A DNA stretch of 64,000 nucleotides from Lepiota brunneoincarnata (taxonomy: Eukaryota; Basidiomycota; Agaricomycetes; Agaricales; Agaricaceae): the NCBI GenBank assembly GCA_023014365.1, contig JAEBUN010000004.1:558001-622000 (forward strand), written 5' to 3'. The position numbers and the translations under genes were made by a program. Of the stretch, positions 1 to 24,912 are shown piece by piece (position 1 is the stretch's first letter; each line of letters starts with the position of its first letter). The notes beneath the pieces were generated by a model. The model worked only from the letters and a program-made list of their open reading frames with translations, had not been told where the DNA came from and did not search any database.

Positions 1-1684
1 GGGTACCGGGATATCTTTTCACTGCCTTGAGTATGTTTAGCTGGATTTGCTGGATAGCGCCGAATAGCGTCGCCGTCAACACCTTGTTCGGCGTTAACAC
101 TGGCTTGGGGATGAGTATATTAACTTTTGACTGGAGCATGATCTCTTTCATTGGTAGCCCCCTCGTTACGCCCGTAGGTGTCCCCTTTGGTTCTCTGCCC
201 GGCAATCTTACTGATGTGGGTGCTAGTGGTGGTCTGAAATGAATACCGGCGTTGCGTTCATCCTTTGTTTCTGGATAATCTGCCCTATCTGGTATTGTAA
301 GTGCATCGTTCTCGGCGGGATTTTCTTGTCTAATATTTCTCGATAGTCACCAATACTTTCAACTCCGCGCATTTCCCCATCTCTTCTTACCTCTCCTGGG
401 ACAACACTGGTGCTCCTTACAACCCGCGGGCTGTAGTTACCAACGGTCTTTTTGACCCAGCCAAGTACTCTCAGTACTCTCCCCTCTTCATGTCCGCAAC
501 TCTCATCATGGCCTACGGTGTTTCGTTCGCCGGCTTCCCGTCCGTTTTTGTGCACACTTTCCTCTGGTTCCGCAAGGATATCGTCAAGCGCTTCAGGAGA
601 ACGTTGAAGGATGAACGAGACATCCACTCTCGGTTGATGCTGGCTTACCCCGAAGTGCCGATGTGGTGGTACGCGGCGATGGGTGCTGTGACATTCATAT
701 TAATGTGCGTCGCGGTCGAAGTTTACCCAACTCAACTACCTGCGTGGGGTGCCATCGTCGCTTTCCTCCTTTCTGCCATCCTTGCCATCCCCTTGGCCAT
801 GCTTATGGCCATCACGAACCAGCACATTCCGACCCAGGTCATGCACGAGCTTATTGCTGGTTACATGTTCCCTGGCCGCCCCATCGCCAATATGCTTTTC
901 AAGTCAATCGCTTTCATCGGTACCTACCAGGCTGTCAACTTTGCTGGTGATCTCAAACTTGGTCACTACATGAAAATTCCCTCCCCGCGTCATGTTCAGC
1001 GTCCAAGTCGTAGCCTCCGTTGTCAGCTGCTTCGTCGTCAGCTCCGTCCAGGACTGGATGTTGGCCAATATCGAAGACATTTGCACGCCTACCCAAAAGG
1101 ACGGTTTCTTCTGCCCAGGGAGCACCGTCTTCGCCACGGCCTCCCTCATCTGGGGTGGTATCGGTCCCGCGAGGATGTTTGGTCCCGGTGCCCCATATAA
1201 TGCCATCGTCTGGTTCTTCCTTATTGGCACCCTCCTCCCCATTCCATTCTACTTCCTTGCTCGCCGCTTCCCGCTCTCGTTCTGGCGCTATGTCAACATA
1301 CCTATTTTCTTTGCTGGTCTTGGAGCCATCCCCCCTGCTTCCGGGATCAATTACATATCCTGGGCTGCAACTGGGTTTTTGTTCAACTACGTGATCAGGA
1401 AGTACCGCTTCAGGTGGTGGATGAGGTATAACTATATCTTGTCCGCTGCACTCGATGCCGGTGTTGCTATTGCTACTGTTATAATCTTCTTCTGCGTTCA
1501 GTATCCAAAGGGTGGTTTTGAGCTCAATTGGTGGGGTAATACGTGAGTCTTCTTTCTTGTATGCTGCCAATCGCAGCTAAATAATGGTTCTCATAGTATC
1601 TGGCAAAACAACGCTGATGCCGAAGGGCGCGCGTTCAGACCTATCCCCGAGGGCACAACGGTTGGTCCTTCGACATGGTCGTAA
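1..1684 (+). CDS. Small oligopeptide transporter, OPT family (5' end missing)
   Basis: Proton-coupled importer of small peptides at the plasma membrane. The window opens inside the gene at a PGYLF motif, then CWIAPN, NTLFG and GLGMSILTFDW, all typical of fungal small OPT proteins. Exons read to about 173, 227-296, 347-1542 and 1597-1684; introns are 53, 50 and 54 nt, and the splice at 173/227 restores TPWWSEMNTGVAF. Later parts include HELIAGYMFPGRPIAN, KIPPRVMF and GPARMFGPGAPYN, alternating with hydrophobic membrane segments. The conserved run MKIPPR only reads through if one base near 982 is skipped, so the gene as given has a one-base insertion there. The family assignment is secure; the substrate is unknown. 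Confidence 0.9.
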
Positions 1685-12480: not shown

Positions 12481-13052
12481 ATGCGACTAGTCATCTTGCT
12501 CTGTGGTTTCCTAGTGACTTCTGCTTCAGCCCTTCCGGTATGTCATACTCTCCTACTCGAGTCTCTAAGCTCAAAATACCCCCCCTTTAGGTTGCTGAGC
12601 CCGCTGCTGTGGCTAGTCCGGGAAATAGTGACTGGAGACGAGGGAATTCTGACTGGCGAAGAGGCAATAGCGATTGGCGACGAGGGAACTCTGATTGGAG
12701 GCGCGGAGGAGTCAATGAACGCGGAAACAGTGATTGGAAGCGGTCAGAAGCCGAAGCTCGCGGCAATTCTGACTGGAGACGGTCTGATGTGCATGCTCGT
12801 GGCAATTCCGACTGGAGAAGAGGAAATTCGGATTGGAGAAGAGATACGGCTTTGGCAGAGGGTGCGGCGCTAGATGGTCGCGGAAACTCTGACTGGAGAA
12901 GAAATGAGGTTGATGTCCGCGGTAACTCGGAATGGAGACGCGAGGAGAATGAAGCTCGTGGTAACTCGGACTGGAGAACAGAGCAATCTAAGCAGGTCTG
13001 TTCGACTGTCCTCCCTGATTACGCCGCTGGTCCTCTGACTCTCTATCAATAG
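12481..13052 (+). CDS. Secreted precursor of GNSDW repeat peptides (Kex2-type)
   Basis: Predicted secreted precursor of 172 residues with a single intron (12538-12590). Exon one encodes a clean signal peptide, MRLVILLCGFLVTSASA, probably cut before LP. After VAEPAAVASP come eleven GNS(D/E)W units; nine are followed by RR, one by KR and the last by RT. Units 1-4 and 7-8 abut directly; others are spaced by short acidic segments ending in Arg (GGVNER, SEAEAR, SDVHAR, NEVDVR, EENEAR). This layout is that of fungal precursors cleaved after dibasic sites by Kex2 and trimmed by carboxypeptidase, such as alpha-factor-like pheromones, KEP proteins and dikaritin RiPP precursors. It is not a CaaX-type basidiomycete mating pheromone. 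No UstYa, tyrosinase or peptidase gene is adjacent. The end is uncertain: a 56-nt intron at 12997-13052 would instead end the protein SKQT at 13059. Core and host role are unknown. Confidence 0.8.
12621..12977 (+). repeat. Eleven-unit GNSDW coding repeat
   Basis: Eleven copies of a 21-base unit encoding GNSDW plus a basic pair, with 0 to 39 bases of spacer. Ten units encode GNSDW and one GNSEW (unit 10). Nearly every unit uses a different codon set for Gly, Asn, Ser and Asp, while the amino acids stay fixed. Confidence 0.9.
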
Positions 13053-13783
13053 ACATAATCTATGACGGCTCTACTTTTTGGGTCTTTGAAACGGACCTTC
13101 TTCCACATTACCGACACATACATTAGTGTCGCTTCACTCTTACTTGAATACCCATTCGCCTAAAAGCTAACTCAGTTTATCTTGGCACGGTTCTCGCACC
13201 ACACCGTAGCGAACTCCTGCTCCATGCATCATCCAACAATAAATATAACCCGTCCTTTCGTTTTGATGGAGGCATGCTAGGCACAGCGGGCACATGGACG
13301 CCTTTGTCCTGCCCCTGCTACGACCATCATGGATAAGGGGTCCGCAACATCAGTTCAAATATAAATGGCCTATTTTCAGAAAATGGTCATATTGCTACCT
13401 GTTAACAAAAGGCCTCCCGGGGATAACGGCAGGATAAGCGGTCACCAGCGTGCTGACGAGGCCATGTATAGCCGGAGACACTCCACGCGAGGAACACGGA
13501 ACATGAATGGTGGCCAACCCACTATCCGCTCCGTGCGCAGTCAGTGCAACTCAGATGTCCGATGAATCTTTCAAGCTGGATGGATGCCCATGGCAACGAG
13601 AGGACAAATGTGTGGGGACCGCCGTCAACGCAGGTGACATGCTATTTTTGGCTCTACATAGATGTCCCGATCGTGATTGTTTGGTTGTGTTGTGTATTGT
13701 TGACGCGTTAATGAGGACGTGACCTGTAAAGACTTTTCCTCCCTGACTCCTCGTCCTCTTCAGGTGTCCTGTCTGCTCCCGCC
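13053..13783. other. Intergenic between repeat-peptide gene and MCM3
   Basis: About 730 bases. The left part should hold the 3' end of the peptide gene, the right part the MCM3 promoter. No convincing coding exon is visible. Confidence 0.45.
13703..13708. promoter_or_regulatory. MCB-like element (ACGCGT) upstream of MCM3
   Basis: ACGCGT stands 76 bases before the MCM3 start. This hexamer is the MluI cell-cycle box bound by MBF-type factors that drive G1/S genes in yeasts, and MCM genes are typical targets. A six-base match can be chance, so this is an inference from position and gene identity. Confidence 0.45.
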
Positions 13784-16522
<2,739 letters not shown>

Positions 16523-22395: not shown

Positions 22396-24912
22396 ATGCC
22401 TGCTTTTTCCTCATACATCCCTGGTCAGTCTCGTGTTCACCGGAACCGCCTATCCAACAGCAATGGCCTTCCAGTCTATGCCGACGGCTCTTCTGCCGTG
22501 CAAGAGAAAGTAGCCCGACATTCACACATTGTGCCATGGTGGCTGAGGCTTAGTATTCCTATTCCCTTCCTCCGGGCGTCTCAACTCCGGATATTCTTCT
22601 TGAGCCCCGCGCGGGTACACGGCTATACGACTGCACGGTTCGGTCGCAGGCGGGGGTGTTCAATGTTAATTCTGCTGTTATTAACGATGTTCCTGTTTGT
22701 GTTTGCGCTTGCGAAGCGGTTTGGGACTCATGGAAAGCGGTGGCCCCTGACGAGGGACTCGAAGACGCTGGTATACGGGAGAGAGGACTTGCAAAGGATC
22801 TGGAAATGGGAGGTTGCGAGTGGGCATTATCCAAGTCGGAGAGGGAGTACGTGTCCACCTATGTTCTCTGTTCTGCTGAGGATGAGGGGCTCATACAACT
22901 TCTTTGTTTAGTTCCTGAGCAGATACGCCTGAAAGAGAAACTTAACAATCCAGCGCTTCCACCGAGGAAGACAAATATACCCTCGTCATTGCAAACGGGC
23001 TCTAGTGAATATTTTACGATGACGCACGGGAATGGGCCTGAGCGGATTTATTTGGATATTCAGAGTCGGCCGCCAAATGTTGCATATCCTCCCAGACCTT
23101 TGCCTGGGAGTATTGCGGACTTGGATATTGTAATGGAGCATTGTGACTTCTCGAAGAAAAAGGTGTTTCTCAAGTTTCCTGGGCCCTGGACTTGAGTATT
23201 TACATTCCGCATCCTTAGTTCGTCAGAGATTGTTTAGAGGTCCTGCGCCTCGGTGCGGGGTTGGATAACGGGAAGCGACTACGGAGGGGAAAGCTAGACG
23301 ACTGGAAGTACATCTACGTCGAACAGGTGGACAATTCGACCTCTCATTCGATGATGCAACAGGGGACGGAGCATAAAGATGAACTCCTTGCAACTACAAC
23401 CTCCCATCATACGCAGTCTCCTCAGGATAATTCCGATCCGGACGCAGGGCTATTCAGGAGGCGAGGCGTTGAATGGGAGAACCCGCCCATCGACTTACGA
23501 CCCCCTGTGGAGTATAAACCTTATACGACACTTCCTACGCCCTGTGATGTGGAAAACCCGCGATTGTTCCACATGTTCTGGACGGGCCCCTTTACGGATA
23601 AGCCGTACCTTGCGATCCTGAGTTTCCTATTCACGCAGAATACTGGGTTGCATTTGAAACATTGGCCGGAGAATGAGGCTTGTAGACCCAAGATCTTGTT
23701 ATGGATTAACCCGGGACCTGCAGCCGCCGTCCCAAACCCGAATGCAGTGAAGGACATGTTCGAGCGGCTCAGCTCTAATCCCTGGGCGGCTCCATTTTTG
23801 CATCCTCGATTTAAGGAGGTCATCGAGTTCAGATTGTGGAACACAACAGAGCAACTGGATGGGATACCAGAGCTTCAGGATGAATGGCGTTCGCGGGACC
23901 TGTTCAACTCAGGCGGGTACGTCATTAACGTTAACCGAGATAAACCTAAAGGCGAAAACGGCACGAGAGAGGATGCAACAGGGAGAGATAACATGCTAAA
24001 TCGCGCTGGATCCAAATCCGCATCAACATATGACCGCCTCTCGGTCATCCTCTCGGATATGGCGCGCTTCATCCTGTGTCACCGGTACGGTGGGATCTAC
24101 CTCGACGCGGATACTATCTTCCTGCGCGATTGGGAAGAACTTTGGGGATGGAAGGGCGCGTTTGCGTATCGCTGGTCGAGACTCCCGCGGTACAACACTG
24201 CTGTGCTCAAAATGAATCGAAATTCGGCGCTGGGGAAATTCTTGTTTAGGACTGCGTTGAGGAATAACTTGGATTTCCATCCAATGACAGTGTCGGTGTA
24301 CACCAGGGAAGCACATCTTGAACCACTGTTGCTCAGGTTGCCAGATGCCTTATTTGACTCGGCATGGTTGAATACAGAGAATTATCAATTGTCGAGGCCG
24401 CCACAGCCGTTCTTCACCAAGTGAGTAGCTGACTTGGCTTCGAGGTGATTTTTGAGCTTTTGGCTGATTTGGTGGGACACCTGTTTAGCTTTGAGCAGTT
24501 TTTTAATACGCCTCTGGCAGAGAGTGCTGCTCCGCAAGCGCTTGGTTTTGAGGGTTTCTTCAGGGGCGCATACTCTTACCACTTTCACAATTTCTGGTGC
24601 GTCTCGAGCTGACCAGTAATGATCTGGCTCATGAACTAATTCGTACCTTTGGAAAGGTGGAAACCTTTTGACCCGGCACGCAACTGGCCGGATCTTGGGC
24701 CGCCATTCAAGGCCAGTGAAAGAGCAGCGCGTGCAGCCTTGCGGGTGGACAAAGCGGAAGGTCAGAATAACCGTACCAGCGAGGGAGGGGAAGAAGAAGG
24801 TTTGGAGCAGGATAGGCGTGATTTGGATTGGGCGACGGTGTTGAAGCGGACATTCGAGTCATATATTCGAGGGGAGAGACCAAATATGTATGGGGAGTGG
24901 TTAGTGTGGTAG
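22396..24912 (+). CDS. Glycosyltransferase with DxD motif, GT32-like, type II membrane protein
   Basis: Likely Golgi sugar transferase. Five exons (22396-22846, 22912-23162, 23219-24420, 24489-24596, 24657-24912) give 755 residues with no frame defect. The N-terminus has about 90 mostly cytosolic residues and one membrane anchor (SMLILLLLTMFLFVFALA), the type II topology of Golgi enzymes. The catalytic part has RLFHMFWTGPFTDKPYLAI, then SDMARFILCHRYGGIYLDAD with the DxD nucleotide-sugar motif, and DWEELWGWKGAFAYRW. The C-terminal exons keep family features (FFRGAYSYHFHNFWWKPFD). This pattern matches the sugar-binding-region DxD family related to OCH1-type and alpha-1,4-GT enzymes. Donor and acceptor cannot be told from sequence. 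It follows pyruvate kinase by 250 bases on the same strand but is functionally unrelated. Confidence 0.85.

What the first reader, a model, noticed from the sequence alone, without database searches (positions are those of the whole stretch)
12481..13052. Secreted precursor carrying eleven GNS(D/E)W peptides between dibasic sites
A small gene encodes a signal peptide and then eleven pentapeptide units GNSDW (one GNSEW); ten are followed by RR or KR, the last by RT. Seen directly: the repeat, the basic pairs, a clean intron and a TATA-like box. Known: Kex2 cuts after KR/RR, and repeat precursors of this form give alpha-factor-type pheromones, KEP peptides and dikaritin RiPPs in fungi. Inferred: this basidiomycete releases a GNSDW-type peptide, perhaps with its Trp or other side chains modified. 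I do not recognise GNSDW from any described peptide.
Basis: partly seen in the sequence, partly recalled or inferred. Interest (0 to 1): 0.88.

Follow-up and report, generated by a model that had tools for sequence, protein, structure and literature searches.

The report
Fungal precursor releasing many GNSDW peptides
A fungus, probably a mushroom relative, carries a small gene whose secreted product looks built to be cut into about eleven copies of the five-residue peptide GNSDW, an apparently undescribed member of a known class of fungal secreted peptides whose jobs are mostly unknown.

Summary
Exon 1 (12481-12537) encodes a signal peptide; a 53-nt intron joins it to exon 2 with ten GNSDW and one GNSEW. 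Ten of 11 units are followed by RR/KR, but only 4 of 11 have dibasic pairs on both sides: six follow a spacer ending in one Arg, the first follows an X-A/X-P leader. The reported end (13052) is probably an intron acceptor; the likelier stop is TAA at 13056-13058 (inferred). The units differ from their consensus by 28 nucleotides but one amino acid, so the peptide is under selection. Five relatives were found, including a Pluteus cervinus protein with four GNSDW units. The genome has a Kex2-like S8/P-domain locus, DPPIV and S10 matches. The nearest UstYa match on this contig is 2.39 Mb away, so a dikaritin is unlikely. Best reading: a KEP (Kex2-processed repeat protein) for a linear secreted peptide, ending in -DW like Lentinula and Pleurotus KEP peptides (PMC9769878). 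New member of a known kind; cleavage and role are inferred.

The parts
12481..12537 (+). Exon 1: start codon, signal peptide MRLVILLCGFLVTSASA (ASA cleavage motif), then LP
   Evidence: translation; 10-aa hydropathy maximum 3.3; similar N-termini in P0002, P0005, P0006. No signal-peptide predictor was run.
12538..12590 (+). Intron 1, 53 nt, GTATGT...CTTTAG, phase 0
   Evidence: sequence; P0005 is continuous across the junction; P0002 has 18 extra residues here
12591..12995 (+). Exon 2: leader VAEPAAVASP, 11 pentapeptide units, KR/RR sites and spacers ending in a single Arg
   Evidence: selection on the core
12591..12620 (+). Leader VAEPAAVASP; with LP of exon 1, six of six dipeptides are X-A or X-P (dipeptidyl aminopeptidase type)
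   Evidence: register probability 0.0076 given composition; post hoc
12621..12974 (+). Array of 11 units (ten GNSDW, one GNSEW), ten followed by RR/KR, four with dibasic pairs on both sides
12996..13052 (+).
   Evidence: similarity to P0001 and P0003 runs out within two residues of its start; inferred
13053..13058 (+). Probable end of the coding sequence in exon 3 (T, stop TAA)
   Evidence: depends on intron 2

Best explanation
A gene with one clear and one probable intron for a KEP (Kex2-processed repeat protein). The chain enters the ER by its signal peptide. A Kex2-type protease cuts after RR/KR, and probably also after the single Arg that ends each spacer and the Arg after unit 11. A Kex1-type carboxypeptidase removes the C-terminal basic residues, and a Ste13/DPPIV-type aminopeptidase pares the X-A/X-P leader from unit 1. 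The product would be up to ten linear GNSDW and one GNSEW per chain, with longer forms such as SEAEARGNSDW if the single-Arg cut is inefficient. Shown: gene anatomy, constraint on the core, relatives, protease-family genes in the genome. Inferred: secretion, each cleavage step, and a role as a secreted signal or in dealings with other organisms.
For: Anatomy. 28 nucleotide differences from the unit consensus give 1 amino-acid change, against a mean of 20.2 (minimum 12) in 100,000 random trials; Ser is encoded by both TCN and AGY. In the five sequences tabulated (P0006 left out), 32 of 36 cores are exactly GNSDW, 34 of 36 are followed by RR/KR, 12 of 36 are preceded by a dibasic pair and 19 of 36 by a single R. 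Relatives P0001-P0003, P0005 (Pluteus cervinus) and P0006. Peptidase_S8 and P-domain segments side by side, DPPIV_N and Peptidase_S9 segments, S10 carboxypeptidase matches. Precedent: linear -DW and -W KEP peptides detected by mass spectrometry in Lentinula, Pleurotus and Coprinopsis, STE13-motif removal, and products ending at single Arg (PMC9769878).
Against: No transcript or peptide data. Seven of 11 units need a step beyond dibasic cutting to gain the N-terminus of GNSDW, and unit 11 also at its C-terminus. The protease genes are identified by domains on separate open segments; only one P-domain match was found, whereas C. cinerea and other agaricomycetes are said to have three kex2 genes; Kex1 was not told apart from other S10 enzymes. 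In P0005 the X-A/X-P leader is separated from the first core by GEDLRR, so the leader may be an ordinary pro-segment. P0002 has altered units (TNPDW, VNPDW, GNW) and P0006 has GSKDW, so not every unit is held fixed.
Confidence: 0.85

Rival explanations
1. Dikaritin-type RiPP precursor: the core is oxidised or cyclised by UstYa-family enzymes after Kex2 cutting.
For: Same precursor architecture; the genome has UstYa genes (18 exon-level matches).
Against: No UstYa match in the window; the only match on contig C36 is at 2963657, 2.39 Mb away. The core has no Tyr. In the Umemura survey 103 of 1680 basidiomycete KEPs had a DUF3328 neighbour (PMC7329392, passages). Of 37 open segments of 150 aa or more that start in the first 32 kb, 20 were scanned with Pfam; the only family of a tailoring type was one glycosyltransferase region, 10 kb downstream. 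The other 17 and the rest of the window were not scanned.
Confidence: 0.05
2. Alpha-pheromone-like mating peptide sensed by a Ste2-type receptor.
For: Repeat precursor with an X-A/X-P leader and C-terminal Trp resembles ascomycete alpha-factor precursors; KEPs of alpha-pheromone form are reported in Basidiomycota (PMC6339444, passages).
Against: No STE2 match in the genome, while STE3 gives 14 exon-level matches; the STE2 search had no positive control. The gene is on C36 beside an MCM gene, the STE3 matches are on C15 and C58.
Confidence: 0.04
3. A secreted repeat protein that acts uncut, or a structural repellent-type (Rep1-like) protein; the basic pairs are incidental.
For: No proof of cleavage here.
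Against: Ten of 11 units keep RR/KR while neighbouring spacers vary; the units are short and hydrophilic. KEPs with C-terminal -W cores are cut in agarics (PMC9769878).
Confidence: 0.04
4. A young tandem expansion without function.
For: Narrow known distribution: five relatives found.
Against: Strong synonymous divergence with a nearly fixed peptide and the same peptide in Pluteus cervinus.
Confidence: 0.02

Closest known systems
KEPs, Kex2-processed repeat proteins (Le Marquer 2019, PMC6339444; Umemura 2020, PMC7329392; Vogt 2022, PMC9769878)
   Same: Signal peptide, repeated short core, RR/KR sites, small gene.
   Different: The string GNSDW is not in the held papers; six cores follow a single Arg.
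Lentinula edodes KEP 2599 (SGTGEASAADW) and Pleurotus KEPs 1091723/1439342 (SGVAADW) (PMC9769878, results section)
   Same: KEP with small residues and a C-terminal -DW; peptides detected in fruiting bodies; the Pleurotus ones have X-A/X-P motifs.
   Different: Our core is 5 residues and ends SDW, not AADW; the precursors were not aligned with ours and common descent was not shown.
Pluteus cervinus hypothetical protein BDN72DRAFT_890582 (P0005)
   Same: Signal peptide, LPVAEPAPVA leader, GNSDW units, same residue order across our predicted junction.
   Different: Four units only, all with dibasic pairs on both sides, no single-Arg spacers; GEDLRR between leader and first unit.
Ascomycete alpha-factor precursors
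   Same: Signal peptide, Kex2 sites, X-A/X-P dipeptides, repeated core.
   Different: Dipeptides only once, before unit 1; no STE2 match in the genome.
Dikaritins (ustiloxin type)
   Same: Kex2 repeat architecture.
   Different: No UstYa match nearby, no Tyr in the core.

Membership tests
KEP | N-terminal secretion signal | tested here: met
   Hydrophobic stretch LVILLCGFLV and ASA motif; similar in P0002, P0005, P0006. No dedicated predictor was available.
KEP | Near-identical repeats separated by KR/RR/KK | tested here: met
   11 units, ten followed by RR/KR; the only such segment in the window under my scan
KEP | Actual Kex2 cleavage and release | not testable with these tools
   Needs peptidomics
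KEP | Kex2, Kex1 and Ste13-type proteases in the genome (supporting, not defining) | tested here: met
   S8 and P-domain segments, S10 (Kex1 not singled out), DPPIV_N and S9 segments; by domain only
Dikaritin RiPP | UstYa/DUF3328 gene clustered with the precursor | tested here: not met
   No match in the window; only match on the contig 2.39 Mb away
Dikaritin RiPP | Oxidised or cyclised product | not testable with these tools
   Needs mass spectrometry
Alpha-pheromone | X-A/X-P dipeptides after the Kex2 site before the cores | tested here: not met
   Dipeptides precede unit 1 only; other spacers are of the type SEAEAR, SDVHAR
Alpha-pheromone | Ste2-type receptor in the genome | tested here: inconclusive
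   No match, but nothing rang in the 14 control genomes; STE3 was found

The most novel reading that the evidence does not exclude
GNSDW and the -AADW peptides of Lentinula and Pleurotus belong to one widespread agaric peptide family in which the C-terminal -(A/S)DW is the recognised part, sensed by a common undescribed receptor. In this branch the precursor adds a second, slower layer of processing at single-Arg spacers, so that one gene gives both a free pentapeptide and acidic N-extended forms.
Probability: 0.15. Interest if true: 0.7.

Novelty: new member of a known kind. Interest (0 to 1): 0.42.

Why it matters
KEPs are common in fungi but few of their peptides have a known role; knockouts of six Coprinopsis KEP genes gave no visible phenotype (PMC9769878). 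This gene offers a very short, strongly constrained core with an exact predicted mass, no second copy found in its genome, and a relative in at least one named agaric (Pluteus cervinus). That makes it a clean case for testing what such peptides do, whether single-Arg sites are used, and whether the -DW end is a shared recognition element.

Tried and rejected
UstYa link: genome-wide family search, 18 exon-level matches, none near. Paralogues: a protein search of the own genome gave this gene and one weak match on C9 (E 0.48, 33% over 36 residues), whose frames I printed and did not pursue. A pair pattern for DW(K/R)R gave 9 matches against 0 for the reversed control; 7 are this gene, and in the other two (C32, C90) the two motifs are out of frame with each other (spacing counted by eye). 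The single-unit pattern gave 44 matches genome-wide, 10 of them this gene, against 19 for the reversed control. Of the other 34 I looked at the eight that had loci: L002, L003, L005 and L006 share flanking sequence, so are copies of one dispersed repeat with a lone GNSDWQ or GNSDWR; L001, L004, L007 and L008 encode other residues in place of Ser. The remaining 26 were not inspected. Viral contigs: 18 stretches matched a pattern, none was a relative. Hits P0004 (E 0.24) and P0007 (E 0.15) were dropped as not significant. In one search I scanned the wrong strand of L015 for the Kex2 gene; one search corrected this. The bacterial promoter/terminator scan does not suit a fungus and was ignored. 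No structure was predicted: a short repeat with cut sites has little to fold. The species was not identified; that it is an agaricomycete is inferred from the relative P0005 and the several STE3 matches.

Limits of the relative searches: one search scored only the 7989 candidates sharing most words; the profile contained P0005 and P0006 themselves, so their E-values there are not independent, and it found nothing else up to E 10.

Papers: PMC9769878 (outline with abstract, introduction, results parts 1 and 2 of 3, discussion); PMC7329392 and PMC6339444 (passages only); the rest were seen as search listings. Absence of GNSDW in print rests (0 papers hold the string) and, weakly, (20 of 171 papers listed, none of the 20 with NSDWRR or NSDWKR); one search found no paper joining Pluteus cervinus or that protein's tag with Kex2. 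Supplementary tables and papers outside the library were not searched, so the family may sit in a published KEP table.

Full report
What is there. The plus strand from 12481 reads MRLVILLCGFLVTSASALP, then a 53-nt GT-AG intron (12538-12590), then an open frame with ten GNSDW and one GNSEW. The order is leader VAEPAAVASP, four units in tandem, then seven more units preceded in turn by GGVNER, SEAEAR, SDVHAR, nothing, DTALAEGAALDGR, NEVDVR and EENEAR. Ten of 11 units are followed by RR or KR, the last by RT. So 4 of 11 units are bounded by dibasic pairs on both sides, six follow a single Arg, and the first follows the leader.

It is not chance. A degenerate pattern for two adjacent units matches four times in the window and never in 100 shuffles. 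The 11 units differ from their consensus at 28 nucleotide places but at one amino acid (D to E); random placement of the same number of changes gave a mean of 20.2 amino-acid changes and never fewer than 12 in 100,000 trials. Gly uses all four codons and Ser uses TCT, TCC, TCG, AGT and AGC. Nei-Gojobori proportions are pS 0.95 and pN 0.09 (much of pN comes from the TCN-AGY paths; without Ser pN is 0.018 and pS exceeds 1, so the ratio is only indicative). The test treats the units as a star and substitutions as uniform. The peptide, not the DNA, is what has been kept.

Gene structure. Relatives support the exon 1-exon 2 join: P0005, a deposited Pluteus cervinus protein, runs ...AALPVAEPAPVAGEDLRRGNSDWRR (its gene structure was not seen), and P0002, apparently translated without splicing, has ASALP, then 18 residues that look like an intron, then VTEPAG. 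The intron is 53 nt here and would be about 54 nt there, so splicing is what keeps our exon 2 in frame with exon 1. P0001 and P0003 match up to ESKQ or EVEQ and then share at most Val-Cys before all three diverge, as expected if CAG|GT is a donor; here 12996-13052 is GTCTGT...CTCTGACTCTCTATCAATAG. The protein would then end ...RTEQSKQT with TAA at 13056-13058. I had no DNA of the relatives, so this is inferred.

Relatives. Two searches gave five relatives below E 0.01: P0001 (1.4e-48), P0002 (2.1e-35) and P0003 (8.6e-15) with the single sequence, and also P0005 (4.1e-17) and P0006 (9.4e-3) with a profile of our protein and the first three (only the 7989 candidates sharing most words were scored). 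A third search, with an N-terminal profile that itself held P0005 and P0006, returned only those two up to E 10. P0006 has one GNSDW and one GSKDW unit. In the five sequences tabulated, P0006 excluded, 32 of 36 cores are GNSDW, 34 of 36 are followed by RR/KR, 12 of 36 are preceded by a dibasic pair, 19 of 36 by a single Arg, and 5 of 36 by something else. Spacers vary in sequence, but those between units end in Arg except two: DEIDARGA in P0001 and a lone I in P0002. P0002 also has three altered cores. Pluteus cervinus is in Agaricales.

Processing. After the predicted signal-peptide cut the leader reads LP-VA-EP-AA-VA-SP, six of six X-A/X-P dipeptides (register probability 0.0076 given composition, a post hoc test). 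Among relatives the figures are 4 of 4 (P0001, probability 0.07), 4 of 6 (P0002, 0.28), 5 of 5 (P0005, 0.024) and 4 of 5 (P0006, 0.024). In P0005 the leader is cut off from the core by GEDLRR, which weakens the argument that its purpose is to free the core. The genome has neighbouring Peptidase_S8 and P-domain segments, the mark of Kex2, one P-domain match in all; six DPPIV_N matches, the best followed by a Peptidase_S9 segment; and 35 S10 carboxypeptidase matches at exon level. Vogt et al. report products that appear to come from cutting after single Arg and suggest Kex2 does it (PMC9769878).

Surroundings. The gene lies about 0.7 kb upstream of what I take as the start of an MCM gene (ORF from 13784, inferred; Pfam MCM at 14592-15800), in a stretch with Prp19-like WD40, OPT transporter, pyruvate kinase and proteasome RPN2 segments (20 of 37 open segments of 150 aa or more from the first 32 kb were scanned, 7 of the 20 without a family). 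The only tailoring-type domain seen is a glycosyltransferase region at 23219-24421. No UstYa match is in the window. No second copy was found. STE3 matches lie on C15 and C58; STE2 gave none, without a positive control.

What it is. The KEP features tested here (secretion signal, repeats separated by KR/RR, processing-enzyme families in the genome) are met; cleavage itself could not be tested. Its nearest described analogues are agaric KEPs with C-terminal -DW, SGTGEASAADW of Lentinula edodes and SGVAADW of Pleurotus, which were detected in fruiting bodies (PMC9769878). The dikaritin reading fails its clustering test. The GNSDW string is in none of the held papers, but supplementary KEP tables could not be searched. 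I rate it a new member of a known kind: a small family with an undescribed, well-kept core, plus a single-Arg spacer feature that deserves a test.

Noticed in passing
   Followed up: partly
L002, L003, L005, L006 around 1500: A dispersed repeat of the genome carries a lone GNSDWQ/GNSDWR in shared flanking sequence; unrelated to the precursor.
   Followed up: partly
window 334-1543 (+): OPT oligopeptide transporter segments about 11 kb upstream of the precursor gene; probably a coincidence.
   Followed up: no
window 23219-24421 (+): Segment with a DXD glycosyltransferase region (PF04488), about 10 kb downstream.
   Followed up: no
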